Positions 1,523 to 28,407 of a stretch of 64,000 nucleotides of DNA are shown one piece after another. Within the stretch, counting starts at the first letter, position 1, and each line of letters begins with the position of its first letter. Below the pieces are notes generated by a model that did not search any database, was not told where the DNA came from, and saw nothing but the letters and a program-made list of their open reading frames with translations. Made by a program: the position numbers and the translations under genes. The stretch is from Cupriavidus necator (GTDB lineage Bacteria; Pseudomonadota; Gammaproteobacteria; Burkholderiales; Burkholderiaceae), in assembly GCA_022041995.1 (NCBI GenBank), contig CP074381.1, positions 1,674,001-1,738,000 of the forward strand. The letters run 5' to 3'.

Positions 1523-4500
1523 GCCAGAAAGACCGTCTCGGCACGGGCGGCCGCATCAATCGCGGCCAGCCGCTGGCCTTCACGTTCAACGGACGCGCAT
1601 ATCAGGGCTACCAGGGCGACACGCTGGCTTCGGCGCTGCTCGCCAACGGCGTGCGCTTCGTCGCGCGCAGCTTCAAGTACCATCGTCCGCGCGGCATTAT
1701 GACCGCCGACGTCGCCGAGCCAAATGCCGTGGTGCAACTGGAACGCGGCGCGTACACCGTGCCGAATGCGCGCGCAACGGAGATTGAGTTGTATGAGGGA
1801 CTCGTCGCGACGAGCGTGAACGCGGAGCCGGACCTGGAGCGCGACCGCATGGCGGTTAACCAGAAGTTTGCACGCTTCATGCCGGCTGGCTTCTACTACA
1901 AGACCTTCATGTGGCCGCGCAAGATGTGGCCGAAGTATGAGGAGAAGATCCGCGAGGCGGCGGGCCTGGGCAAGGCGCCCACGACGCTGGACGCCGATCG
2001 CTACGACAAATGCTACGCGCATTGCGACGTGCTCGTGGTCGGCGGCGGCCCTGCCGGCCTTGCGGCCGCGCATGCGGCGGCAGAGACAGGCGCGCGCGTG
2101 ATCCTCGTCGACGACCAGCGGGAGCTCGGCGGCAGCCTGCTGTCCGGGCGGACCGAGATCAACGGCAAGGCCGCACTGCAGTGGGTTGGCGAGATCGAGA
2201 GCAAGCTGCGCAAGCTGCCGGACGTGACGATCCTGACGCGCAGCAACGCGTTCGGTTACCAGGACCACAATCTTGTCACCGTTACGCAACGCCTCACTGA
2301 CCACTTGTCTGTATCGATGCGTCATGGCTCGCGCGAGTTACTGTGGAAAATCCGCGCAAAACGGGTGATCCTCGCGACCGGCGCACACGAGCGACCGATC
2401 GTCTTCGGTAACAACGACCTGCCGGGCGTAATGATGGCGTCTGCGGTGTCGACCTACGTCCATCGCTACGGCGTGCTGCCAGGGCGTGACGCGGTCGTGT
2501 TTACGAACAACGATCGCGGCTATCAGGCGGCGCTCGACCTGAAGGCGTGCGGCGCCAAGGTGACGGTCGTCGATCCGCGCACCGCGACCAATGGCGCGCT
2601 GCCCGCCTTCGCGAAGCGGCAGGGCGTGACCGTCATGAACGGAGCGGTCGTGATAGCCGCGTCCGGCAAGCGGCAGGTCACGTCGGTCAAGGTGACCTCC
2701 TATGCGAACGGACAGGCAGGCGGCAAGGTGTCGACGATCCCTTGCGATCTCGTCGCCATGTCGGGCGGCCTGAGCCCGGTGCTTCACCTGTTCGCGCAGT
2801 CGGGCGGCAAGGCGCAGTGGAGCGATGAGAAGGTGTGCTTTGTGCCGGGCAAGTCGCTGCAGGCCGAGGTGAGCGTTGGTGCGGCGGCGGGGAGTTCGAC
2901 CTTGCGCTGGCGCTGCCGCTCGCACTGGAAGCGGGGGCCGAAGCGGCGAAAGCCGCCGGCTTCAGTACCGCAAAGCGGCTGGCCGCGCCGAAGGTCACGC
3001 CGGTCGCCGAGGGTGCCCTGCTGCCACTTTGGCTCGTCGGCAGCCGCGCGGCCGCGGCGCGCGGGCCGAAGCAGTTCGTCGACTTCCAGAACGACGTCGC
3101 TGCGTCGGACATCCTGCTCGCCGCGCGCGAAGGCTTCGAGTCGGTCGAACATGTCAAGCGCTACACCGCGATGGGCTTCGGTACCGACCAGGGCAAGCTC
3201 GGCAACATCAACGGGATGGCGATCCTGGCACAGGCGCTCGGCAAGTCGATACCCGAGACCGGCACGACCACCTTCCGCCCGAACTACACGCCGGTCACGT
3301 TCGGCACGTTCGCCGGGCGGGAAGTCGGCGACTTCCTTGACCCGGTCCGCAAGACCTGCATCCACGAATGGCACGTCGAGCATGGCGCGCTGTTCGAAGA
3401 CGTCGGCAACTGGAAGCGTCCATGGTACTTCCCGAAGAAGGGCGAGAACCTGCACGCGGCGGTGAAGCGCGAGTGCCTCGCGGTGCGCAACAGCGTCGGC
3501 ATCCTCGATGCGTCGACGCTCGGCAAGATCGACATCCAGGGCCCGGACGCGGTGACGCTGCTGAACTGGATGTACACCAACCCGTGGAACAAGCTTGAAG
3601 TCGGCAAGTGCCGTTATGGCCTGATGCTTGACGAGAACGGCATGGTCTTCGACGACGGCGTGACGGTGCGGCTCGGCGAGCAGCATTTCATGATGACGAC
3701 GACGACGGGCGGCGCCGCGCGCGTGCTGACCTGGCTGGAGCGCTGGCTGCAGACCGAATGGCCGCACATGAAGGTCCGGCTTTCATCGGTGACCGATCAC
3801 TGGGCGACGTTCGCGGTGGTCGGGCCGAACAGCCGCAAGGTGCTGCGCAAGGTCTGCGATGACATCGACTTCGCCAACGACGCGTTCCCGTTCATGAGCT
3901 ATCGGAACGGCACCGTCGCCGGCGCAAAGGCACGCGTGATGCGGATCAGCTTCTCGGGCGAGCTGGCGTACGAAGTGAACATTCCCGCGAACGCCGGCCG
4001 TGCCGTGTGGGAAGCGCTGATGGCCGCTGGCGCCGAGTTCGACATCACGCCGTACGGCACGGAAACGATGCACGTGCTGCGCGCGGAGAAGGGCTACATC
4101 ATCGTCGGCCAGGACACAGACGGTTCGGTCACGCCGTATGACCTCGGGATGGGAGGCGTCGTCGCGAAGTCGAAGGACTTCCTCGGCAAGCGCTCGCTGA
4201 CGCGCTCGGATACCGCGAAGGAAGGCCGCAAGCAGTTCGTCGGCCTGCTGACCGACGACGCGGAGTTCGTCCTGCCCGAGGGCGCTCAGATCCTCGCGCC
4301 GGGCACGCGCGTGTCGACGACCGAGCCAACGCCGATGATCGGCCATGTGACGTCGAGCTACTACAGTCCGATCCTGAAGCGTTCGATCGCGCTCGCCGTG
4401 GTGAAGGGCGGCCTGGGCAAGATGGGCCAGAGCGTTGCGATCCCGCTGGCCAATGGCCGGCGCGTGATGGCGAAGATCTCCAGCCCCGTTTTCTACGATA

Positions 4501-4529
4501 CCGAAGGAGTGCGCCAGAATGTGGAATGA
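1519..4529 (+). CDS. soxA: Sarcosine oxidase subunit alpha, interrupted by a one-base loss
   Basis: Large alpha subunit of sarcosine oxidase. The N-terminal part has a ferredoxin-like region (QGDTLASALLANGVRFVARS). An NAD-binding Rossmann motif follows (VLVVGGGPAGLAAAHAAAE, near residue 172). The C-terminal half is GcvT-like and folate-binding (LDASTLGKIDIQGPDAV; HVLRAEKGYIIVGQDTDG). The reading frame breaks in the G4 run at 2889-2892: before it the frame reads AEVSVGAAAG, and after it the -1 frame resumes with GEFDLALALPLALEAG, the expected continuation. Adding one base gives about 1003 residues, the normal length. No domain is missing, so a sequencing or assembly error is more likely than decay. 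It starts within ATGA of soxD and overlaps soxG by 11 bases. Confidence 0.9.
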
Positions 4530-5172
4530 AACGGGTAATGCTACGCCGGTCGCAGACATGCCGGCGACGGATGCGCGCCAGCGCGGCGTCCGACTCGAGT
4601 CGCCGTTCATCGGCGCGACCGATCTGCTGAACGCGCAGCAGGCGCGCGCATCGAAGCACTTCGTGATGCGCGAGCGCGCCTTCCTTGATCTCGTCAACGT
4701 GCGCGGCGATCTGTCCGATCCTGTATTCGTCGACGCGTTTGAGGGCGTGGTCGGGTGCTGTCCGCCAGCCGCCCCTAACACAGTCGCGCGCAGTACCAAC
4801 TATGACGTGCTGTGGCTCGGCCCCGACGAGTGGCTCGTGCGGTCGAACGGCCCCGTGCCGGCGGGCGTACTCGAGCCGAAGCTCGCTCAGGCGATCGCCG
4901 GAGCTTACGCGGCGGCGGTCGACGTCGGCAGCGGCTATACGGTCGTCGAGATCAGTGGGGGCCGCGTGCGCGACGTGCTGGCGCGCGGCTGCCCGCTCGA
5001 TCTGCATCCGCGCGTGCTCAAGCCGGGGCAGTGTTTGCAGAGCCACTACTTCAAGGCCTCGATCGTGCTCGTGCCGACCGGCGTCGACCGCTTCGAGATC
5101 GTGGTGCGCCGCAGTTTTGCCGATTACTTCTGCCGCATCATGCTCGACGCGGCGCAGCCGCTGACATCATGA
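4519..5172 (+). CDS. soxG: Sarcosine oxidase subunit gamma
   Basis: Gamma subunit of heterotetrameric sarcosine oxidase, 217 residues, related in fold to GcvT-type domains. Recognisable segments are LGPDEWLVR, DVGSGYTVVEISG and the closing RRSFADYFCRIMLDAA. The start MWNETGN lies inside the end of soxA and the stop overlaps the next ATG (ATGA), consistent with one translationally coupled operon. No frame problem is seen. Confidence 0.92.
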   Translation: MWNETGNATPVADMPATDARQRGVRLESPFIGATDLLNAQQARASKHFVMRERAFLDLVNVRGDLSDPVFVDAFEGVVGCCPPAAPNTVARSTNYDVLWLGPDEWLVRSNGPVPAGVLEPKLAQAIAGAYAAAVDVGSGYTVVEISGGRVRDVLARGCPLDLHPRVLKPGQCLQSHYFKASIVLVPTGVDRFEIVVRRSFADYFCRIMLDAAQPLTS

Positions 5173-5615
5173 AGCTCGTCGATAACGCGTTCAACGGACC
5201 ACTCGGTGCACTCGACGCGCCGCTCCTGCCGGGCAGGGGATGGAGCGTGTTCATCGATGCGTTGGCGGTGCCGGTGCGGATTGGCATCCATCCGCATGAG
5301 CACGACGCACCGCAGCCGCTCGTCATCGACGCACGACTCGGCTATCGTTGCGAGCCGCGCGAGGAAGGCGAGTGGATCGATTACGAGGGCTATTGTGCTC
5401 GCCTCGCCGCGTTTCTCGCGCACAAGCCGCATACTCGGCTGCTCGAGACGCTGGTGGCCGAAATCGCGGAGCTGTCGTTTCGCGAATGGCCGGCGCTCGA
5501 CACGCTGACGCTTGCCGTGCACAAGCCGAAGATCCGGCCTGGCACGCAACGCGTCGGTGTCGCACTCGAGTGGACACGCGCCGATTACCTGAGGCGCAGC
5601 GGGAAGGCGGGATAG
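5169..5615 (+). CDS. FolB-like dihydroneopterin aldolase family protein
   Basis: A 148-residue protein of the dihydroneopterin aldolase/FolB family, recognised from the segments VRIGIHPHE, IDYEGYCARLAAFL, HTRLLETLVAEIAEL and LTLAVHKPKI. The family acts in tetrahydrofolate biosynthesis. Translation starts at the ATGA overlap with soxG, so it belongs to the sarcosine oxidase operon. Since sarcosine oxidase uses THF as methyl acceptor, a dedicated enzyme that raises the folate pool is a reasonable inference. The protein may not be the housekeeping FolB of the cell, so no symbol is given. Confidence 0.8.
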   Translation: MKLVDNAFNGPLGALDAPLLPGRGWSVFIDALAVPVRIGIHPHEHDAPQPLVIDARLGYRCEPREEGEWIDYEGYCARLAAFLAHKPHTRLLETLVAEIAELSFREWPALDTLTLAVHKPKIRPGTQRVGVALEWTRADYLRRSGKAG

Positions 5616-5630
5616 TCGTTGCCCGAGCCG

Positions 5631-5657
5631 TGTCGGCGTTGTTCAAACGCGTGTCGG
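5631..5657 (+). promoter_or_regulatory. Candidate AraC-type site upstream of the porin
   Basis: Two direct TGTCGG hexamers at 5631-5636 and 5652-5657, exactly 21 bp apart (two helical turns), with TTCAAACGC in the spacer. TTGGACATAG follows at about 5660-5669 and may be the -35 region. The same arrangement occurs at 8656-8682 and 25109-25135. Direct repeats two turns apart are typical of AraC-family activators, and a GbdR-like regulator is encoded nearby. Binding is inferred. Confidence 0.55.
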
Positions 5658-5700
5658 TATTGGACATAGGCTTTCCCGTCTCGCGAACTACTCTCGAAGA

Positions 5701-5737
5701 CGCTGCCGCACATGCCGCGCCGACCGGCGCGGCAGCG
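5701..5737 (+). promoter_or_regulatory. Leader with two mutually exclusive hairpins
   Basis: CGCTGCCGC at 5701-5709 can pair perfectly with GCGGCAGCG at 5729-5737. The intervening TGCCGCGCC (5713-5721) pairs with GGCGCGGCA (5726-5734), and the two stems compete for the same 3' arm. The element ends 36 bases before the porin ATG. A close copy sits at the same spacing before fdhA, with a G-C to G-T change that keeps pairing. An RNA switch or a duplicated promoter are both possible. Confidence 0.45.
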
Positions 5738-5770
5738 GCGCGAGTCACGATAATACAAGGAGAGAATCCA

Positions 5771-6920
5771 ATGAAAATGGGAGCGACTGCGGGCCCGGCT
5801 CTGGCGCTGATGTTTTCCGCGTCCGCCTTTGCCCAAAGCGGCGTCACGCTGTACGGTGTGATCGACGAAGGCATCAACTATACGAATAACGTCGGCGGGC
5901 ATAGCCTGACCGAACTGGCAAGCGGCTTTGCGCAAGGCAGCCGTTGGGGCCTGAAGGGGACGGAGGATCTGGGCGGCGGCCTCAAGGCGTTGTTTCAGCT
6001 CGAGAACGGTTTCAATGCAAGCAACGGCAAGGCGGCACAGGGCGGGCTGATGTTCGGTCGGCAGGCCTACGTCGGGCTTTCCGACAATCAATGGGGGAGC
6101 GTCACGCTCGGGCGCCAGTATGATTCGGTGATCGACTATCTCGCGCCGACGACCGTTGCCGGCAATTGGGGGGAACCATGTTCGGCCACCCCTACGATAA
6201 CGACAACCTGATCTACTCGTTCCGCGTCAACAACACCGTCAAGTACACGAGTCCCTCGCTTGGCGGGTTCCAGTTCGGCGGCACCTACAGTTTCAGCAAC
6301 GACACCAACTTTGCCAACAACCGCCAGTACGGTGCGGGATGCAGTACGCGAACGGAGGCTTGTTGCTGGCTGCAGCCTATCTCCAGGCGGACAACCCGTC
6401 GGCGACGGCGGGGGGCGCCATCAATAACGGCGGCGACCAGAACTTCCTTGCCAAGCGTTTGCGCATCTTCGGAGCCGGCATCAACTACACGTTCGGCGCG
6501 GCGACGGCAGGCTTCGCTTACTCCAACTCGAATCTGACCGAACCGCTGTCCACTTCGTACATCTCCGGCTCGATCCTGCCGGCCAGCGGCACGTTGAACT
6601 CGCTCCGGTTCCAGAACCTGGAAGTAAATTTCAAGTATCAGTTCACGCCCGCCTTCTACGCGGGCGGGGCGTATACGCTCACCCTGGAAAACTTCAACGC
6701 GTCGTCGGGCGAGGCGAAGCCGAAAGTTCATTCCGTCGGCCTGATGGCGGACTACAGCTTCTCGAAGCGCACGGACGTCTATATCCAGGGTGCCTACCAG
6801 CATGTCGCCGGCGGCAAGACCGGCACCGCATTGGACATGGCTGACTTGCCCGGGGCGTCGAACGCTTCATCGACGTCGAATCAGTTCCAGGTCCGTGCGG
6901 CGATTCGCCACAAGTTCTAA
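5771..6920 (+). CDS. Outer-membrane porin (Gram-negative general porin type), two one-base losses
   Basis: Trimeric beta-barrel porin of the outer membrane. The start follows a strong AAGGAGAG ribosome site. The signal peptide MKMGATAGPALALMFSASAFA is cleaved before QSGVTLYGVIDEG, the usual first strand of Burkholderiaceae porins. SRWGLKGTEDLGGGLKALFQ and the terminal QVRAAIRHKF (C-terminal Phe) are hallmarks. The frame shifts at the G6 run 6168-6173 and again at 6336-6338. In both places one missing G explains the shift, and the repaired protein has about 383 residues. The position between the sarcosine oxidase and formaldehyde dehydrogenase genes suggests entry of betaine-type substrates, which is an inference. 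Confidence 0.88.
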
Positions 6921-6941
6921 ACCTGTTCCCTCCCGGCGGTC

Positions 6942-6969
6942 GCCACGAGTCGCGACAGCGACTCGTGGC
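6942..6969. terminator. Perfect hairpin between convergent genes
   Basis: GCCACGAGTCGC and GCGACTCGTGGC form a perfect 12-bp stem with a GACA loop, 21 bases after the porin stop and 44 bases before the stop of the converging MFS gene. No T tract follows on either strand. It may therefore be a bidirectional transcription barrier or an mRNA 3' end stabiliser rather than a classic terminator. Confidence 0.5.
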
Positions 6970-7013
6970 AGGCGGCCTGGACCGGCACTTCTCGCGAGAA
7001 CCGGACCTGCGCG

Positions 7014-8443
7014 TCAGGAGGACTTGTCCGCTACAGCGGGATAAAGCGCCGTCTCACCTGTTGCGTCCTCGGACGCCAGCGCTTCCAGTGCGACGCCACG
7101 GGTCTCGATACCCAGCACCCACACAGCGAGTGCCGCCACCGCGAACGACAGCGCGCCGAGCGTGAACACGCCGCCCTGTCCGAATACCGGTAACACCACG
7201 CCAACCACGTAGGGGCCGATCAGCGAGCCGATCCGCCCGACCGCCGAGGCGAAACCCGATCCCGTCGCACGCGAGCCGGTACCATACTGCTCCGGCGTGT
7301 AGGTGTATAGCACCGCCCACATGCCGAACAGGAAGAACTGCATCGCCAGGCCGGTGCCGACGAGCAGCGCGACACTGCCGCCATACAGCGCACTCTGGCC
7401 ATACAGGTACGCCATCATGCCGCCGCCGAGCAGCGACGCGATGCAGGTTGGCTTGCGCCCCCAGCGCTCGACGAGCCACGCTGCGCACAGGAAGCCCGGT
7501 ACGCCTCCGAGGGAGATCAGTACCGTGTAGTACACCGATTGCGTGACCGCAAAGCCGGCCTGCTGCAGCAGCGCGCCAAGCCAGGACGTCAGTCCGTAGA
7601 AGCCGAGCAGCGCGAAGAACCACAGTAGCCAGACCATCGTCGTGCGGCGGCGGTATGCGCCGCTCCAGATCTCGCGCAGCGCGCCGCGCCCGCGCACTGT
7701 CGCGGCCATTGGCTGCTGCGACGGTCGCGGCAGCATCGCGACGCCGGCCGAACGCATTACCCTGGCCTCGATGCCACGCATCACCGCGTCGGCCTCGGCG
7801 TGCCTGCCCGCATGCTCGAGCCAGCGCGGCGACTCGGGCACGATGCGGCGAACGATCAGCACGAACACGGCCGGGATCGCGAGCAGCGCGAACACGGTGC
7901 GCCAGCCGAACTGCGGCAGCACGAAGTAAGAGACAACCCCGCGGTGATAAAACCGAGCGGCCAGAAACCGTCCATCAGTGCGATCAGGCGGCCGCGATTC
8001 GCGGTGGGGACGAATTCGGACAACAGCGTTTGCGCGACCGGAAACTCCATGCCCATGCCGATGCCGAGCAATACGCGCCAGGCGATGAGCGCGTCGACGC
8101 TTTGCGCAGTCGAGCAAAGATACGACGCTATGCCCCACAGCACCATGCTCCACTGGAACACAGGTCGTCGTCCGAAGCGGTCCGCGAGCAGGCCGGCGAG
8201 CGCCGCGCCGACCACCATCCCGAAGAAGCTTGCGCTGGCGACGACGCCGGTCATTGCGGTGGACAGCCCGAACTCCTGCTTGATCGAGCCCAGTATGAAC
8301 GTCATGGTGGCGAGATCGACCGAGTCGAAGAAGAAGGCAATCGCGACGATGACGAAGATCAGCTTGTGGTAGCCGGAAAACGGCAGACGTTCGAGCCGCG
8401 CGGCGGCGTTCGAGCGCGTGGGTGAGGTGGTGGGAGTTGGCAT
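7014..8443 (-). CDS. MFS transporter, one-base loss
   Basis: Twelve-helix inner-membrane carrier of the major facilitator superfamily. The motif LADRFGRRPVFQ follows helix 2 and PESPRWLEHAGR follows helix 6, a signature of sugar-porter-like and organic-acid MFS carriers. The start MPTPTTSPTRS at 8443 has AAGGA upstream. The frame breaks at the C4 run 7937-7940 (G4 on the coding strand), where GFITAG should continue directly into VVSYFVLPQFGWR. One added base restores about 476 residues. It lies between the porin and fdhA, so a quaternary amine or a breakdown product is the likely substrate, but the sequence does not show which. Confidence 0.85.
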
Positions 8444-8540
8444 GGCGTCCTTGAAAAAATGAGGACCTCTTAGCGGGTTGCTTTCAGGCCCCAATCTTCA
8501 GTAGACGTGGTTATCGCCGCACGCTCTGGAGAATACCCGT

Positions 8541-8567
8541 CGCCGGTCTGTGCAAATCCGACATCGG
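8541..8567. promoter_or_regulatory. Weaker AraC-type site upstream of the MFS gene and fdhA
   Basis: CGCCGG at 8541-8546 and CATCGG at 8562-8567 are 21 bp apart, with TGTGCAAATCC in the centre. Spacing and centre match the sites at 8656 and 25109, but the hexamers are degenerate. It lies about 100 bases before the MFS start and 115 bases upstream of the stronger fdhA site. It could serve the divergent MFS gene. Confidence 0.35.
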
Positions 8568-8655
8568 CAGACCAGTGTCGGGGCGGTACCGCCCGGCTCG
8601 CGCGGTGGGCGCGCGCGGCGTACCCAATGCCGAGGTCGGAGCCGACGCTCACCGA

Positions 8656-8682
8656 TGTCGGCGCTGTGCAAGCGCCTGTCGG
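8656..8682 (+). promoter_or_regulatory. Candidate AraC-type site upstream of fdhA
   Basis: TGTCGG at 8656-8661 and 8677-8682, 21 bp apart, with CTGTGCAAGC in the spacer and TTTTGGACATAG immediately after. The whole segment to about 8770 aligns with 5631-5745 upstream of the porin, so promoter and leader appear to be copies of one module. Confidence 0.55.
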
Positions 8683-8725
8683 GTTTTGGACATAGCGGCC
8701 TGGTGTCCCGGAATACGCTCGAAGA

Positions 8726-8765
8726 CGCTGCCGCGCATGCCGCGCCGATCGGCGTGGCTGCGGCA
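8726..8765 (+). promoter_or_regulatory. Second copy of the hairpin leader, before fdhA
   Basis: CGCTGCCGC at 8726-8734 is identical to the upstream arm at 5701. GCCGCGCC (8739-8746) pairs with GGCGTGGC (8751-8758, one G-T pair). TGCCGC (8729-8734) can instead pair with GCGGCA (8760-8765). As in the porin copy, about 35 bases separate the hairpin from the ATG, with GGAGA between them. Confidence 0.45.
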
Positions 8766-8793
8766 CGATTCAACGAGACATGGAGACAATGCG

Positions 8794-9989
8794 ATGAGCA
8801 GCAACCGAGGTGTCGTATATCTTGGCCCGGGCCAGGTCGAGGTGCAGAAGATCGACTATCCGAAAATGGTCGATCCCAGCGGCCGGGCAATTGGCCACGG
8901 CGTGATCCTCAAGGTCGTCAGCACGAACATCTGCGGCTCGGACCAGCACATGGTGCGCGGCCGCACGACCGCACCGACCGGCCTCGTGCTCGGTCACGAG
9001 ATCACCGGCGAGGTCATCGAAATCGGCCGCGACGTCGAGACATTGAGGATCGGTGATCTGGTGTCGGTGCCGTTCAACGTCGCGTGCGGCCGCTGCGCGA
9101 TGTGCAAGGAGCAGCACACCGGCGTATGCCTGAGTGTCAACCCGTCGCGCGCGGGCGGGGCGTACGGCTATGTCGACATGGGCGGCTGGATCGGCGGGCA
9201 GTCCGAGTACGTGATGGTGCCGTATGCCGACTTCAACCTGCTGAGGTTCCCCGACCGCGACCAGGCGATGGCAAAGATCCGCGATCTCACCTGCCTGTCG
9301 GACATCCTGCCAACGGGCTATCACGGCGCCGTGACCGCGGGCGTGAAGCCGGGTCGACGGTCTACATCGCCGGCGCGGGCCCGGTCGGCATGGCGGCTGC
9401 CGCTTCGGCGCGCCTGCTCGGCGCGGCCTGCACGATCGTCGGCGACATGAACCCGGCGCGTCTCGCGCATGCGAAGGCGATGGGCTTTGAGGTCGTCGAT
9501 CTGTCGAAGGACGCGACCCTAGGCGAGCAGATCGCAGAGATTCTCGGCACGCCCGAGATCGACTCCGCTGTGGACTGCGTCGGCTTCGAAGCACACGGCC
9601 ACGGCTCGTCAGGCTATGTGGAGGAGGCGCCCGCCACCGTGCTCAATTCGCTGATGGAAATCACGCGGCCAGCCGGTGCGATCGGGATTCCGGGTCTCTA
9701 CGTGACCGACGATCCTGGCGCCAAGGAGGCTGCAGCGCAGCGCGGCAGCCTCAGTATCCGCTTTGGCCTCGGGTGGGCGAAGTCGCACTCTTTCCATACG
9801 GGTCAGACGCCCGTGCTTAAGTACAACCGCAACCTGATGCAGGCGATCCTGCACAATCGTTTGCCGATCGCGGAGATCGTCAATGTGTCGGTAATTTCGC
9901 TCGACCAGGCGCCGGAAGGCTACAAGCAGTTTGATGGCGGCGCGCCCCGCAAATTTGTCATCGATCCGCACGGGCTGATGGCGGCCTGA
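8794..9989 (+). CDS. fdhA: Glutathione-independent formaldehyde dehydrogenase, one-base loss
   Basis: Zinc-dependent, NAD-linked formaldehyde dehydrogenase of the medium-chain alcohol dehydrogenase family. It oxidises the formaldehyde released by demethylation to formate. Catalytic zinc motifs NICGSDQHMVRG and GHEITGEV and the structural-zinc cysteines CGRCAMCKEQHTGVC are present. The frame breaks at 9351-9353 after TAGVKPG. One added base continues into STVYIAGAGPVGMAAAASA, the NAD-binding fold, and gives 398 residues, the family length. The ATG at 8794 has GGAGA upstream. A strong terminator follows at 10011. Confidence 0.93.
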
Positions 9990-10084: not shown

Positions 10085-11116
10085 TCACGCGTGCAGCACC
10101 GTCGATGGTGATGCGTACGCCGAGCCGCCTTTTCCCGACAACTTCGCCAGCGGCGCGCCCTGCGCCCTGCGCTCGCGCGTCGGGGCGACGCCGAACGCGT
10201 CGCGGTAGCTCTTGCTGAAATGGCACGCGGACTGGAAGCCGCATGCCATCGTGATGTGCATGATCGACATATCTGTTTGCAGCAGCAGCTCGCGCGCGCG
10301 GCGCAGGCGCAGCGTCAGGTAGTAATGGGTCGGCGTCATCCCAAGATGGTCGCGGAACAGGCGCTGCAATTGCCGTTGCGACAGGCTTGCCAGCCGTGCG
10401 AGCTCTTCGCGCGACAGCGGCTCCTCGATGTTGTTCTCCATCAGCGAGACCACCTCGAACAGCGACTTCTTCGCTGAGCCTAGCCGCGCAACCAATGGCA
10501 TCTTCTGCTGCGCGGTCGTGTCGCGTACGTGCTCGACGATGAACTGCTCAGCGATCTGCGTGACGCGCGCGGTACCGACGCGACGTGTGATCAGGTTCAG
10601 CATCATGTCCAACGGCGCAACGCCGCCCGTGCACGTGACGCGGTCGCGGTCGATCACGAACAATTCCTTCAGGAAGCGCGTGTCGGGAAACTCCTCCTTG
10701 AGTGCGGACATGTTCTCCCAGTGGATCGCGCAGGCATAACCGGCCAGCAGCCCCGATTTCGCGAGCGCATACGTGCCGGTGCAGAGGCTCCCCAGCATGA
10801 TGCCCTCGCGCGCCGCGCGGCGCAGCGTGGACAGGTGCTCCGCTGTCGTCGAACGCTGCACGTCGATGCCGCCGCAGACGAACATGATGTCCGGACGCCC
10901 GACGCTGTCCGCCCGGTGGGTGTCGATCGCCAGGCCATTGCTTGCCGTCACCAATCCGCCTTCCGGGCTGATGACGGTCCAGCGGTACAGCTCCTGGCCG
11001 CTCAGGTAATTGGCCATCCGCAGCACTTCTATCGCATTAGTGAACGCGATCATGGTGAAGTTGGGTAGCGGCATGAACGCGAAGTGAGATAACGACGCGG
11101 TGCGATCGATCGACAT
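10085..11116 (-). CDS. gbdR: GbdR-like AraC-family regulator of glycine betaine catabolism
   Basis: GlxA-type regulator of 343 residues with an N-terminal DJ-1/PfpI-like sensor domain and a C-terminal AraC helix-turn-helix pair. The sensor domain contains FTMIAFTNAIEVLRMANYLS and LCTGTYALAKSGLLAGY. The HTH region runs from about residue 225 to 325 (LARLASLSQRQLQRLFRDHLG; CGFQSACHFSKSYRDAFG). The segment LSGQELYRW resembles Pseudomonas GbdR, which senses glycine betaine and dimethylglycine and activates gbc, dgc and sox genes. The start at 11116 (MSIDRTASLSHF) has AAGGA upstream. It is divergent from glyA. The assignment as the GbdR orthologue rather than a paralogue is inferred from this similarity and from location. 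Confidence 0.8.
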   Translation of the reverse strand: MSIDRTASLSHFAFMPLPNFTMIAFTNAIEVLRMANYLSGQELYRWTVISPEGGLVTASNGLAIDTHRADSVGRPDIMFVCGGIDVQRSTTAEHLSTLRRAAREGIMLGSLCTGTYALAKSGLLAGYACAIHWENMSALKEEFPDTRFLKELFVIDRDRVTCTGGVAPLDMMLNLITRRVGTARVTQIAEQFIVEHVRDTTAQQKMPLVARLGSAKKSLFEVVSLMENNIEEPLSREELARLASLSQRQLQRLFRDHLGMTPTHYYLTLRLRRARELLLQTDMSIMHITMACGFQSACHFSKSYRDAFGVAPTRERRAQGAPLAKLSGKGGSAYASPSTVLHA

Positions 11117-11530
11117 GGGGGGCGTCCTTCGGATTTTTAAGGTGCATTTCCAGCCCAGAGGGAAAGGCTGGATGCTGTTTTTATTTATTGTTAAGTTAGC
11201 CGCAACAAACATGCCATACGGCGAAACCCTAGCTCTTTAGTAGGGTGCCCGACTGGAGGCATGGCGGGCGCCGCTTTCGTTGCACCGCAATCGGGACACG
11301 CCGCACCTGTGATGCGCGTCGGGCACCGCCGCAGTGCCGTCCCAGGGCCACTTGTGCAAATCGGACGCAAATGGCGGAAATGGAAAAGAACGCGTCTGAA
11401 TTCATCAATCGGGCCAAAACACGAACGACAAGAATAGAGCCGTCGGCAACGCTGCGCCGACCAGTCGGAAAGGCCTGGCGCAGCGGGCCTCTCGCCCCCA
11501 GTCAGGTATCTCCATCCCACACGGACCTCT
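11117..11530. promoter_or_regulatory. Divergent promoter region gbdR-like / glyA
   Basis: A 414-bp gap between divergent genes with an AT-rich patch near 11170-11200 (TTTTTATTTATTGTTAAG on the plus strand) that could hold the regulator promoter. The string TTGTGCAAATCGGACGC near 11351-11367 resembles the centre of the proposed regulator sites, but its flanking hexamers are poor matches. No ORF with credible coding character was seen. Confidence 0.4.
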
Positions 11531-12805
11531 ATGTCGAACACCCAGTCTTTCTTCTCGCAGCCCCTGGCCGAGCGCGATGCGCTGGTTCGCGGCGCCCTTT
11601 CGAAGGAACTCGAACGTCAGCAGTCGCAAGTCGAGCTGATCGCCTCGGAAAACATCGTGTCGCGTGCGGTCCTCGAAGCACAAGGCTCGGTACTGACCAA
11701 CAAGTACGCCGAGGGTTACCCGGGCAAGCGCTACTACGGCGGCTGCGAATTTGCGGACGAAGTCGAATCGCTCGCGATCGAGCGCGTGAAGCAGTTGTTC
11801 AACGCCGGCTTTGCCAACGTGCAGCCGCACTCGGGGGCGCAGGCGAACGGCTCGGTGATGCTCGCGCTGACCAAGCCAGGCGACACCGTGCTCGGCATGT
11901 CGCTCGACGCCGGCGGTCACCTGACCCATGGCGCGAAGCCGGCCCTGTCGGGCAAGTGGTTCAACGCCGTGCAGTATGGCGTGAACCGCGAGTCGATGCT
12001 GATCGACTACGACCAGGTCGAAGCGCTCGCGAAGGAGCACAAGCCAAGCCTGATCATCGCCGGCTTCTCCGCGTATCCGCGCCAGCTCGACTTCGCCCGC
12101 TTCCGCGCGATTGCCGACAGCGTAGGCGCCAAGCTGATGGTCGACATGGCGCACATCGCCGGCGTCATCGCTGCGGGCCGCCATTCGAATCCGGTCGAGC
12201 ACGCCCACGTCGTCACCTCGACCACGCACAAGACCCTGCGCGGCCCGCGCGGCGGCTTCGTGCTGACCAACGACGAGGAGATCGCCAAGAAGATCAACTC
12301 GGCCGTGTTCCCCGGCCTGCAGGGCGGCCCTTTGATGCACGTGATCGCCGGCAAGGCGGTCGCGTTCGGCGAAGCCCTGACATCGGAGTTCAGGACCTAC
12401 ATCGACAACGTGCTCGCGAACGCGAAGGCGCTCGGCGAGGTGTTGAAGGAGGGCGGCGTCGACCTCGTGACCGGCGGCACCGACAACCACCTGCTGCTGG
12501 TCGATCTGCGTCCCAAGGGGCTCAAGGGCACGCAGGTCGAGCAGGCGCTCGAGCGCGCCGGCATCACCTGCAACAAGAACGGCATCCCGTTCGACACCGA
12601 GAAGCCGACGATCACGTCGGGGATCCGGCTCGGCACACCGGCTGCCACGACGCGCGGTTTCGGCGTTACGGAGTTTCGCGAGATCGGCCGCCTGATCCTC
12701 GAGGTGTTCGAAGCGCTACGCGCGAATCCGGACGGTGACGCCGCCACCGAGCAGCGCGTGCGCCGCCAGATCTTCGCGCTGTGCGACCGCTTCCCGATCT
12801 ATTGA
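11531..12805 (+). CDS. glyA: Serine hydroxymethyltransferase
   Basis: PLP enzyme that converts glycine and methylene-THF to serine, the outlet for both the glycine and the one-carbon unit made from betaine. It has 424 residues. Family motifs are [34 protein letters not shown] and [13 protein letters not shown], with the PLP lysine near residue 234. It heads the series glyA, dipeptidase, DUF5943, dgcA, dgcB, etfA, etfB, all on the same strand. It is probably a pathway-specific paralogue of the housekeeping glyA, which is inferred from context. Confidence 0.95.
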
Positions 12806-24857: not shown

Positions 24858-25333
24858 TGGATTCCTTTCTTGGGGTGGTGTGGCGGGCGGGCGCGTTGCG
24901 CGCCTGCGCGGGCCATGCGCGAAGTAAAGCAGGCTGCATGGCAGGCCGGATAGAACCGAAGCGCCGCGTGGCTGGTATCGGCGCGCCAACGCACGGTGCT
25001 ACCCGATGCCGGTGTCTTCAGCAAGGTCGCGCGGGCGGGTCGCAATCGATCCATTCGGCGTCGCTTGCGCACAAGCCGGGCCGGACCATCGGTTGCCATG
25101 GTTGGCGGTGTCGCATTTATGCAAGCCCTTGTCGGAATTCATCGGCAGGAGAGGGCCTTTTCTGGCAACTATGTAGGTGATCGCACCGTTTCTGTTTGTG
25201 ATGCGACGAACCGAATTTGCCAAGGTATTCCAGGGAAGAAGTAGCAATGCACCGCCAGCGCCTTTCGGATACAAGGAAGTCGCCGGTATGCCATATGACG
25301 TATGAGTCCCCGCAGGACCAGGAGAAGGTTTCG
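24858..25333. promoter_or_regulatory. Promoter region between purU and the transporter ATPase gene
   Basis: A 476-bp divergent intergenic stretch. It holds the regulator-type site at 25109-25135. The ATPase frame is open upstream to about 25217, with a possible alternative ATG at 25247. No other coding sequence was recognised. Confidence 0.5.
25109..25135 (+). promoter_or_regulatory. Candidate AraC-type site upstream of the transporter operon
   Basis: TGTCGC at 25109-25114 and TGTCGG at 25130-25135, 21 bp apart, with ATTTATGCAAGCCCT between them. This is the same hexamer spacing and TGCAAGC centre as upstream of fdhA. It lies about 200 bases before the ATPase start. Confidence 0.5.
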
Positions 25334-26491: not shown

Positions 26492-27380
26492 AATCCTTCC
26501 GCTCGGCCACTGGGTCGACCAGTCCGTCCATTACCTTCTAGATCACGACGCGGCCACGTTCGACGCGGTCGGTCGAGCGATCGAGGGGCTCGCCGCAATG
26601 ATCGAGCGGAGCCTGCAGGCGGTGCCGATGTGGCTGATGATGGCGTTCTTCATTGGCATCGGACTCTGGCGCGTCGGCTGGCGCTTTGCGATCTTCACGG
26701 CCGCATCGCTGTTCGTGATCTTCGCCACGGGATTCTGGGATCAGACCGTGATTACGCTGGGCCTCACGCTGTCGTCGACGATCATCAGTCTGATCCTTGG
26801 CGTTCCGCTCGGCATCTGGGCGGCGAAGAGCCGGGTGGTTGCGGCCATCGTGCGCCCGATCCTTGACCTCATGCAGACGATGCCGGCCTTTGTCTACCTG
26901 ATTCCTGCCGCGATGCTGTTCGGACTGGGTCGCGTGCCGGGTATCCTGTCGACCGTGATATTTGCGATGCCGCCCGCGGTGCGCCTGACCAGCCTTGGGA
27001 TTCGCCAGGTGAACATGGAGATCGTCGAAGCCGGCTATGCGTTTGGCTGCACGCCGTGGCAGTTGCTGTACAAGGTGCAGTTCCCCAACGCGCTGCCGTC
27101 GATCATGCAAGGCGTCAACCAGACCATCATGATGGCGCTGTCGATGGTGATCATTGCATCGATGGTAGGCGCGGGCGGCCTGGGCAACGAGGTGCTAGCG
27201 AGCATCCAGCGGCTCGACATCGGCCTGGGCTTCGAAAGCGGCCTGTCGGTGGTGCTGCTGGCGATTGTCCTGGACCGCATTACGGAGAGCTTTGGGCGTG
27301 CACCGGGTACCGCGAAGGCGCCGCTGTTCTCGGGGCTCAGGCAGCTGTTCAGTGCCAAGACGGCGACGGCCCACGCCTGA
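26484..27380 (+). CDS. Glycine betaine/choline ABC transporter permease (ProW type)
   Basis: Inner-membrane permease of 298 residues with about seven hydrophobic segments. The binding-protein-dependent transport motif is seen at EAGYAFGCTPWQLLYKVQFP, following LDLMQTMPAFVYLIPAAMLF. It overlaps the ATPase gene and is followed 31 bases later by an AraC-type regulator, so the three probably form one transcript. Confidence 0.92.
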   Translation: MSEILPLGHWVDQSVHYLLDHDAATFDAVGRAIEGLAAMIERSLQAVPMWLMMAFFIGIGLWRVGWRFAIFTAASLFVIFATGFWDQTVITLGLTLSSTIISLILGVPLGIWAAKSRVVAAIVRPILDLMQTMPAFVYLIPAAMLFGLGRVPGILSTVIFAMPPAVRLTSLGIRQVNMEIVEAGYAFGCTPWQLLYKVQFPNALPSIMQGVNQTIMMALSMVIIASMVGAGGLGNEVLASIQRLDIGLGFESGLSVVLLAIVLDRITESFGRAPGTAKAPLFSGLRQLFSAKTATAHA

Positions 27381-27411
27381 TTCCGGCTCAGCCGTTCGCC
27401 AGGAGAGCGAT

Positions 27412-28407
27412 GTGAGGTCCGTTGCCGCCGCGCTGGCTCACAGCGCTCCACCGCCGATGTCGACGCTCGCGCATTTCGGCTTCCTGACGTTGCCCGATTT
27501 CTCGATGATCGCATTCTCGAGCGCGGTCGAAGTGCTGCGGATGGCGAACTATGTCGGGCGAGCCGACCATTACACGTGGTCGATTTATTCCGCACAAGGC
27601 GAGCCGGTGCGGGCGAGCAATGGCATCGCGGTGCGGCCGACGCGAGCGCTCGATGCCTCGGAATTGCCCGACGTGATGATCGTCTGCGGCGGCATCCGCA
27701 TCCGCGATGCCGTCGACGATGGCACGCGCATGATGCTTGCGCGACTCGCCGGGCAGAACATGCCGCTCGGCGGCATTTGCACGGGTGCCTACGCGCTGAT
27801 GTCGAGCAGTCTGCTCGACGGTTACCGCTGCGCCGTGCATTGGGAGAACCGGTCCGCGCTGCACCACGAGTTTCCGCTGGTGCAATTCGCCGACGAACTG
27901 TTCGTCATCGACCGGGACCGGCTTACCTGCACGGGCGGCACAGCACCGATCGACATGATGCTGAATCTCGTCGGCCTGCGTTTTGGCCAGCAAATGGCCG
28001 CGCAGGTCTCCGAACAGTTTATTCTCGAGCGGATCCGTGGCGCGACCGATCCGCAGCCGATCCCGGTCGACGCACGGGTTGGCCTCTCGCGGGCGGAGCT
28101 GATCGAGGTCGTGCGGCTGATGGAGGCGAATATTGAGGAGCCGCTGTCGCTGGACGAGCTGGCGCGGCTCGTTCAGCTGTCGCAGCGGCATCTGCAGCGG
28201 ATCTTCAAGTTCTATCTGAACGTGTCGCCGACCCACCACTACCTGACCCTGCGCCTGAAGCGCGCGCGCGAGCTGCTGCGCACGACCAACGCGTCAATTG
28301 CCCGTGTCACGGCCGTCTGCGGCTTCCATTCGCCTTGCCACTTCAGCAAGGCGTACCGCGCCCAGTTCGGTCATGCGCCCAGCCACGAACGCCGACCGAC
28401 GCGATGA
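27412..28407 (+). CDS. Second GbdR/GlxA-type AraC-family regulator
   Basis: A 331-residue paralogue of the regulator at 10085, with the same DJ-1-like sensor (FSMIAFSSAVEVLRMANYVG; GGICTGAYALMSSSLLDGY) and AraC HTH pair (LARLVQLSQRHLQRIFKFYLN; CGFHSPCHFSKAYRAQFG). The GTG start at 27412 is preceded by AGGAGAG at 27401. It is probably cotranscribed with the transporter. In Pseudomonas the related regulators GbdR, SouR and CdhR respond to betaine, sarcosine and carnitine. Which ligand this one senses is unknown. Confidence 0.87.
   Translation: MRSVAAALAHSAPPPMSTLAHFGFLTLPDFSMIAFSSAVEVLRMANYVGRADHYTWSIYSAQGEPVRASNGIAVRPTRALDASELPDVMIVCGGIRIRDAVDDGTRMMLARLAGQNMPLGGICTGAYALMSSSLLDGYRCAVHWENRSALHHEFPLVQFADELFVIDRDRLTCTGGTAPIDMMLNLVGLRFGQQMAAQVSEQFILERIRGATDPQPIPVDARVGLSRAELIEVVRLMEANIEEPLSLDELARLVQLSQRHLQRIFKFYLNVSPTHHYLTLRLKRARELLRTTNASIARVTAVCGFHSPCHFSKAYRAQFGHAPSHERRPTR

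What the first reader, a model, noticed from the sequence alone, without database searches (positions are those of the whole stretch)
5631..8770. Duplicated promoter-leader module in front of the porin and fdhA
Segments 5631-5745 and 8656-8770 align along about 115 bases: TGTCGG repeats 21 bp apart, TTGGACATAG, CTCGAAGACGCTGCCGC, and a G/C hairpin. Each ends the same distance from the ATG. Conservation past the likely transcription start, including a pairing-preserving C-to-T change, implies a function in the RNA as well as in the promoter. Two unrelated genes share it.
Basis: partly seen in the sequence, partly recalled or inferred. Interest (0 to 1): 0.75.

Follow-up and report, generated by a model that had tools for sequence, protein, structure and literature searches.

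The report
Shared betaine-type promoter with hairpin leader
A stretch of DNA that probably switches on formaldehyde detoxification during growth on glycine betaine was copied once, long ago, in front of a neighbouring porin gene in Cupriavidus, so that both genes carry the same switch and mostly a similar RNA hairpin at the start of their messages.

Summary
Window 5631-5774 and 8656-8796 are two copies (78% identity, E 6.6e-23) of one module: TGTCGG-N15-TGTCGG, a -10-like element 37 bp after the start of the second repeat, a GC hairpin and the ribosome-binding site.

The window lies in Cupriavidus. Both copies occur together in 15 of 60 genomes of the genus, the same 15 that hold a close gbdR homologue. 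Elsewhere in the family the module lies before fdhA in Burkholderia, Paraburkholderia, Caballeronia and Trinickia. The porin copies, seen only in Cupriavidus and one related genome, form one clade: one old duplication.

The operator has the 15-bp-spaced architecture published for CdhR, described as similar to GbdR sites. Its exact pattern occurs three times in the 9.6-Mb genome, all in this betaine region.

The hairpin starts near the predicted 5' end and usually keeps its pairing as its sequence changes, but covariation is weak and two porin copies have lost it. I favour a GbdR-type promoter with a 5'-terminal stabilising hairpin: a known kind of system, with a leader not in Rfam and a clear promoter capture.

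The parts
5631..5657 (+). Operator of the porin copy: half-sites TGTCGG at 5631-5636 and 5652-5657 with a 15-bp spacer
   Evidence: PWM score 40.2 against at most 16.4 in 20 shuffles of the window (the PWM was built from this site among others)
5660..5669 (+). TTGGACATAG box between operator and -10
5689..5694 (+). Predicted -10 element TACTCT, 37 bp after the start of half-site 2
   Evidence: spacing 37 or 38 in 30 of 30 Cupriavidus copies; conserved in sequence
5703..5741 (+). Leader hairpin of the porin copy
   Evidence: fold z -4.5, -4.3 on a shorter stretch; z mean -2.77 over 15 Cupriavidus porin leaders
5757..5764 (+). Shine-Dalgarno region before the porin ATG at 5772
   Evidence: read directly
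5772..6920 (+). Porin gene (Porin_4 in an intact relative), broken into several frames in this assembly
8656..8682 (+). Operator of the fdhA copy: half-sites TGTCGG at 8656-8661 and 8677-8682
8684..8695 (+). TTTTGGACATAG box
8714..8719 (+). Predicted -10 element TACGCT, 37 bp after the start of half-site 2
8729..8765 (+). Leader hairpin of the fdhA copy
   Evidence: fold z -2.6, only -1.5 on a shorter stretch; z mean -1.77 over 15 Cupriavidus fdhA leaders; pair counts
8794..9989 (+). fdhA, glutathione-independent formaldehyde dehydrogenase, with a frameshift near 9350 in this assembly
   Evidence: TIGR02819
10085..11212 (-). GbdR homologue (AraC family), convergent to fdhA: the proposed activator
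   Evidence: NF052371, 389.6 bits, below its cut-off of 480; close orthologue in the same 15 of 60 genomes as the paired module
25109..25135 (+). Third operator-like site (TGTCGC-N15-TGTCGG) upstream of a choline/betaine ABC transporter gene cluster; without the rest of the module

Best explanation
The module is an activator-dependent promoter plus a structured 5' leader. Shown by sequence: two TGTCGG half-sites spaced by 15 bp, a fixed 37-38 bp from half-site 2 to a -10-like TAC[TG]CT, in most copies a GC hairpin whose foot lies 4-11 nt after the -10, then the ribosome-binding site. Inferred: the GbdR homologue encoded next to fdhA binds the two half-sites in the presence of betaine metabolites and recruits RNA polymerase, so that fdhA can remove the formaldehyde released by demethylation. 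Inferred: the hairpin sits at the 5' end of the mRNA and mainly protects it from 5'-end-dependent decay. The module was duplicated once, in a common ancestor of Cupriavidus and a related genus, and came to lie in front of a general porin, putting the porin under the same control, probably for substrate entry. Confidence by step: shared GbdR-type promoter about 0.85; one old duplication about 0.9; selection for the hairpin in the RNA about 0.65; stabiliser as its role about 0.4.
For: Both copies in 15 of 60 genomes of the genus, no third match at E up to 1e-3. The same 15 have the close gbdR orthologue. 14 of 18 full-length fdhA genes found in the genus abut the module; the 4 paralogues elsewhere have no match. 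Of 65 hit places examined, 63 lie directly before fdhA (47) or the porin (16). In the named scan 81 of 83 matches lie before fdhA (76) or the porin (5). Operator pattern exact at only 3 places of the 9.6-Mb genome, all in this locus. The CdhR site has half-sites with a 15-bp spacer and is described as very similar to GbdR, SouR and ArgR sites (passages of PMC5806209). Identity between the two copies of a genome is 0.92-0.93 in the half-sites and 0.82 in the -10 block, against 0.30 upstream and 0.53 before the -10. Hairpin: sense z means -1.1 to -2.8 in five groups of four genera against -0.42 for 220 control windows; foot at most 11 nt after the -10 in 96 of 98 leaders with a stem of 5 or more pairs (0.98, against 0.66 in shuffles); cells paired 86-93%. 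Porin copies form one clade, support 0.96.
Against: No binding, expression or start-site data. The GbdR homologue scores below the curated Pseudomonas cut-off. gbdR was not found in the fetched stretch in 33 of 76 named fdhA loci, some of them cut short; it was within 300 bp of fdhA in none of the 20 loci labelled Burkholderia. Covariation is weak: the number of pairs changed on both sides is reached by 56 of 500 shuffles (Burkholderia) and 470 of 500 (Paraburkholderia plus Caballeronia), and partners slid by -2 give 3 such pairs against 2 in both. Two of 15 Cupriavidus porin leaders have no hairpin; the two Trinickia leaders fold worse than shuffles; in Caballeronia the median z is no better than that of the complement. 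Much of the Burkholderia hairpin stability is expected from GC content (median rank 0.117 among GC-matched windows). RNAalifold did not recover the hairpin on the mixed alignment A6.
Confidence: 0.6

Rival explanations
1. Only the operator and promoter matter; the hairpin is a by-product of GC-rich sequence and of common origin.
For: Half-sites and -10 are the best conserved blocks; the hairpin sequence varies most and is absent in two porin copies; Burkholderia leaders rank only moderately among GC-matched windows; slid controls match or exceed the count of pairs changed on both sides in two of three alignments.
Against: Sense z below controls in four genera; cells paired fall to 17-62% when the partner is slid; two-sided changes to A-U and U-A within Cupriavidus; G025 keeps a shorter perfect hairpin in fdhA.
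Confidence: 0.24
2. The hairpin is a regulated RNA element (bound by a metabolite, protein or sRNA) that adds a second, post-transcriptional control shared by fdhA and the porin.
For: Recurrent position over several genera; the ribosome-binding region behind it is well conserved. An sRNA that represses a Burkholderia porin by pairing at its 5' UTR is known (passages of PMC10117139).
Against: Loop and stem sequence are not conserved between genera, as a ligand or sRNA site would need; no Rfam match at gathering score and only two sub-threshold matches in a permissive scan; lost in two porin copies.
Confidence: 0.12
3. The palindrome is a DNA operator for a second regulator just downstream of the start site.
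For: It is nearly palindromic DNA.
Against: Sequence changes between genera while pairing mostly stays, with many G-U pairs; the mean z of the transcript strand is below that of its complement in four genera.
Confidence: 0.06
4. Transcription attenuator: the hairpin ends transcription early unless conditions allow read-through.
For: A GC-rich hairpin lies in the leader.
Against: No run of T follows it; the scan found no terminator-like site on the + strand of 5560-8860.
Confidence: 0.02
5. Leader peptide: the ATG inside the hairpin starts a short regulatory or extended reading frame.
For: 13 of 15 Cupriavidus fdhA leaders hold an upstream ATG, 10 in frame with the gene.
Against: 8 of 15 porin leaders hold one and none is in frame; in frame in 1 of 35 Paraburkholderia, 2 of 14 Caballeronia and 1 of 20 Burkholderia leaders; no clear ribosome-binding site before it (read).
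Confidence: 0.02

Closest known systems
GbdR regulon promoters of Pseudomonas aeruginosa (GbdR, with the related CdhR, SouR and ArgR sites)
   Same: AraC-family regulator beside betaine catabolism genes; direct-repeat half-sites with a TCG-like core and a 15-bp spacer; class of target genes
   Different: Half-site here is TGTCGG (CdhR: GGTCGC; one GbdR distal half-site: GCCGC); adds a TTTTGnACAT-like box, a fixed distance to the -10 and a leader hairpin, none of which appears in the passages read. That fdhA belongs to the P. aeruginosa GbdR regulon is recalled, from no call.
5'-terminal stabilising stem-loops (E. coli ompA and papA, B. subtilis aprE)
   Same: GC hairpin within a few nucleotides of the predicted 5' end, upstream of the ribosome-binding site; exact sequence not conserved
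   Different: No half-life data here; shared by two genes through promoter duplication. The known examples come from reference titles seen in PMC3997798 and from recall.
NcS25 control of porin BCAL3473 in Burkholderia cenocepacia
   Same: RNA-level control of a porin in the same family of bacteria
   Different: Pairing at the ribosome-binding region and start of the gene; its 5' UTR is otherwise not conserved (passages of PMC10117139). Whether the two porins are orthologous was not tested.

Membership tests
GbdR-family (AraC) operator | Two direct half-sites with a 15-bp spacer | tested here: met
   TGTCGG-N15-TGTCGG in both copies and in relatives; published spacer
GbdR-family (AraC) operator | GbdR homologue in the same genomes | tested here: met
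   The 15 of 60 genomes with the paired module are the 15 with the close orthologue; the homologue is below the NCBIfam cut-off
GbdR-family (AraC) operator | Sites at several betaine or choline genes of the genome | tested here: inconclusive
   Third exact site before the choline-type ABC transporter at 25109; a weak candidate at 11372 before glyA is within shuffle range
GbdR-family (AraC) operator | Binding and betaine-dependent activation | not testable with these tools
   needs EMSA and reporter
5'-terminal stabilising stem-loop | Hairpin begins within a few nt of the 5' end | tested here: inconclusive
   Foot 4-11 nt after the -10 in 96 of 98 leaders; the start site itself is not mapped
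5'-terminal stabilising stem-loop | Pairing kept, sequence free | tested here: inconclusive
   partly in favour, covariation weak; two losses
5'-terminal stabilising stem-loop | Longer mRNA half-life with the hairpin | not testable with these tools
   needs a rifampicin chase
Known riboswitch or leader RNA (Rfam 15) | Match at the gathering score | tested here: not met
   Only a tRNA in the window; two matches far below their gathering scores in the permissive scan of the porin copy, none in that of the fdhA copy
Intrinsic attenuator | Hairpin followed by a T run | tested here: not met
   and reading of the sequence

The most novel reading that the evidence does not exclude
The fdhA leader hairpin is a regulated RNA element, found widely in Burkholderiaceae, that senses the state of one-carbon metabolism (for example formaldehyde stress through a protein or sRNA) and was carried with its promoter to a porin, so that a detoxification enzyme and an uptake channel share both transcriptional and RNA-level control.
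Probability: 0.08. Interest if true: 0.65.

Novelty: new member of a known kind. Interest (0 to 1): 0.36.

Why it matters
It gives a precise candidate operator for the betaine regulator in Burkholderiaceae; I saw no description of one in the listings, but that library lacks most subscription papers. It also shows a clean case of promoter duplication recruiting a porin into a catabolic regulon, with operator and -10 held by selection after the split. If the hairpin controls mRNA decay, it offers an inducible, stabilised promoter for Cupriavidus engineering. It is not a new class of system.

Tried and rejected
Leader peptide: rejected because the ATG and frame are not conserved. Attenuator: rejected, no T tract. 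Known RNA family: rejected. Gene conversion or recent duplication: rejected, since porin and fdhA copies fall apart in the tree (porin clade support 0.96), and the fdhA copy most like a porin copy lay in the same genome in only 1 of 16 genomes. Sigma-54 promoter: by eye the GG/GC spacing does not fit; not tested. Extra copies elsewhere: no third match at E up to 1e-3 in the genus. Two module-like hits in genus g37 (L075, L076) lie before no fdhA, close gbdR or porin; left unexplained. The match in a Rhodoluna MAG (L173) has no fdhA or porin behind it and is taken as chance. A first operator pattern had one N too many and could not find the modules; corrected. RNAalifold on the first 10-copy leader alignment paired the -10 with the Shine-Dalgarno region, which makes no sense if the -10 is not transcribed; disregarded. 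RNAalifold recovered a hairpin in the Cupriavidus fdhA and porin sets, but in the 20 Burkholderia-group leaders of that call only the five outer pairs of it. Structure prediction and viral collections were not used.

Rows dropped: one search gave 95 matches; 13 are second views of a place already counted, leaving 82 places; 65 of these were carried into, and 17 further hits of genus g35 (Burkholderia) were left out. The hits of genus g33, all near threshold, were not examined; of genus g44, 7 were examined, and further ones were fetched but not analysed. G025 fdhA was left out of alignment A7 (14 of 15 used). A6 used 38 of 47 distinct Paraburkholderia and Caballeronia leaders; 9 Paraburkholderia leaders of a divergent type were left out. 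The porin leaders of G080 and G025 (no hairpin) are included in the group. In one search one of 99 leaders had no stem of 5 pairs and is not in the 98. The control windows are less GC-rich (0.61) than the leaders.
Full report
OBSERVATION. The two stretches are real and align over about 140 bases, from TGTCGG to the start codons. Searching the whole 9.6-Mb genome with the fdhA copy returns itself and the porin copy (78%, E 6.6e-23); the third place scores E 0.002 over 34 bases. The half-sites are 21 bp apart in both copies, and half-site 2 starts 37 bp before the -10-like hexamer in both.

SETTING. Around lie SoxG (4519-5172), a FolB-like protein (5172-5615), the porin, an MFS transporter on the - strand, fdhA (TIGR02819), a GbdR homologue (10085-11212, -), glyA at 11531, and further on a choline-type ABC transporter and a second GbdR homologue (the glyA and MFS names are read from the translations, from no family search). 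This looks like a glycine betaine catabolism region. Contigs of equal length in named records identify the genus as Cupriavidus (G025 as Cupriavidus sp. P-10, G070 as C. necator SHC 2-3).

RELATIVES. A sequence-only model of ten copies (R1) was run on 60 genomes of the genus: 16 have a match, 15 of them exactly two, and G011 one weak partial match. In 398 genomes of the family 125 match at E up to 1e-3, in 7 of 25 genera, some near threshold. In 300 genomes of the order 3 match at E up to 1e-4: the own genome, G093 (genus g35) and one weak hit. Of 65 places examined, 47 lie directly before fdhA, 16 before the porin and 2 before neither. The 80 listed loci hold 83 matches: 76 before fdhA, 5 before the porin, 1 cut off by the locus end but with a Cupriavidus fdhA-type leader, and 1 chance hit. 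By record title the other hits are Cupriavidus, Burkholderia, Paraburkholderia, Caballeronia or Trinickia.

TRACKING THE BETAINE LOCUS. In the genus, 15 of 60 genomes hold full-length fdhA above the cut-off, 18 genes in all; the own gene is missed, as expected from its frameshift. Fourteen of the 18 abut the module; the four others, in G083, G002, G074 and G007, lie elsewhere and have no R1 match. A close gbdR orthologue is present in exactly the 15 genomes with the paired module; in G063 it lies on another contig, that of fdhA ending just behind the gene. One more genome, G078, has only the distant second homologue. In the named loci gbdR was found within the fetched stretch in 43 of 76, in 33 of them within 300 bp of fdhA. 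Of the 20 loci labelled Burkholderia none has it within 300 bp and 3 have it further off, so adjacency is not general. The operator pattern TGTCGS-N7-CAARC-N4-GTCG occurs exactly three times in the genome: before the porin, before fdhA, and at 25109 before the ABC transporter. With up to two mismatches it is no commoner than its control, 278 against 354. A candidate at 11372 before glyA is within the range of shuffles.

OPERATOR. The published CdhR site has two GGTCGC half-sites with a 15-bp spacer and is called very similar to the sites of GbdR, SouR and ArgR; mutating the CG of a distal half-site abolished GbdR binding (passages of PMC5806209). The present half-site and spacer fit that architecture. 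Binding by the homologue here is inferred.

BLOCKS. Between the two copies of the same genome (15 genomes) identity is 0.92-0.93 in the half-sites, 0.82 in the -10 block, 0.65 in the operator spacer, 0.53 in the 18 bp before the -10 and 0.30 just upstream. Operator and -10 are thus conserved as separate blocks. A tree of the modules puts all 16 porin copies, with that of genome G173 from another genus, in one clade (support 0.96). The fdhA copy most like a given porin copy lies in the same genome in 1 of 16 cases. This points to one old duplication. The porin was found in 7 of the 80 named loci, all Cupriavidus, though many of those loci hold little DNA upstream of fdhA; that the porin joined the locus in that lineage is therefore likely, not shown.

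HAIRPIN. Both own leaders fold into a similar two-part hairpin (z -4.5 for the porin, -2.6 for fdhA; complements -2.2 and -0.7); on a shorter stretch the fdhA leader gives only -1.5. Mean sense z is -1.77 (15 Cupriavidus fdhA), -2.77 (15 Cupriavidus porin), -1.91 (33 Paraburkholderia), -1.12 (14 Caballeronia), -1.48 (20 Burkholderia), but +1.09 for 2 Trinickia; 220 windows upstream of other open reading frames give -0.42. By mean the complements are weaker in all groups but Trinickia; by median Caballeronia too is reversed (-0.84 against -0.96). The sequences are related, so the p-values printed there are not independent. Against GC-matched windows of the same loci the median rank is 0.01-0.05 in Cupriavidus, Paraburkholderia and Caballeronia, 0.12 in Burkholderia and 0.46 in Trinickia. 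The hairpin foot lies 4-11 nt after the -10 in 96 of 98 leaders that have a stem of at least 5 pairs, of 99 (0.66 at most 11 nt in mononucleotide shuffles).

COVARIATION. For the named hairpin, cells paired are 91.6% (20 Burkholderia), 92.8% (14 Cupriavidus fdhA) and 86.4% (outer part, 38 Paraburkholderia and Caballeronia), against 17-62% when the partner is slid. Pairs changed on both sides: 2 (56 of 500 shuffles as high), 3 (11 of 500) and 2 (470 of 500); but a slide of -2 gives 3 such pairs in the first and third alignments. Covariation scores are reached by 12, 9 and 1 of 500 shuffles and exceed each slid version, narrowly in the third (0.259 against 0.248). Examples in Cupriavidus are G-C/G-U/A-U at columns 33-46 and C-G/U-G/U-A at 23-51. 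RNAalifold found the hairpin in Burkholderia but not in the mixed alignment. This is support, not proof. Against it, the porin leaders of G025 and G080 have lost the hairpin while keeping operator and -10, and outside Cupriavidus the hairpin sequence is the most variable part of the leader. G025 fdhA keeps a shorter perfect hairpin.

MECHANISM. Most likely a GbdR-type activator binds the half-sites in the presence of betaine metabolites (in Pseudomonas GbdR answers to glycine betaine or dimethylglycine; passages of PMC3170909) and activates a promoter with a poor -35. The transcript would start just before the hairpin, whose place at the 5' end and freedom of sequence suit a stabiliser against 5'-end-dependent decay. 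In B. subtilis the pyrophosphohydrolase needs unpaired 5' nucleotides (passage of PMC3997798); 5' stem-loops that lengthen mRNA life in E. coli are known to me from reference titles there and from recall. That fdhA removes formaldehyde from demethylation is established pathway knowledge. The porin's substrate is not known.

VERDICT. A real, conserved promoter-leader module of known kind, with one clear promoter-capture event and a plausible but unproven RNA element.

Noticed in passing
window 2800-2900, 6160-6340, about 7930, about 9350: A sarcosine oxidase subunit (name read from the translation), the porin, the MFS transporter and fdhA are each split over frames in this assembly, while fdhA and most porins of relatives are intact; several breaks in 7 kb suggest indel errors in the draft rather than gene decay.
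   Followed up: partly
window 27265-28407 (+): A second GbdR homologue lies in the same region, next to the choline-type ABC transporter. In one search the second homologues of 16 genomes are 53-55% identical to the fdhA-linked one, and 12 of 16 show a stop inside the matched stretch.
   Followed up: no
L075:641-744 (+) and L076:526-624 (+): Two genomes of genus g37 hold an operator plus -10 module with no fdhA, porin or close gbdR behind it, perhaps remnants after gene movement.
   Followed up: partly
L168:3001-3975: A weakly similar (22% identical) GbdR-like protein lies downstream of the orphan module of G131.
   Followed up: no
L302, L303, L304, L305 (G083, G002, G074, G007): fdhA paralogues 77-80% identical to the betaine-locus protein lie elsewhere and lack the module.
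   Followed up: yes
window 8775-8797: The ribosome-binding stretch before fdhA (ACATGGAGACA...ATG) is unchanged in 20 Burkholderia leaders and largely kept in other genera, perhaps more than a Shine-Dalgarno sequence alone requires.
   Followed up: no
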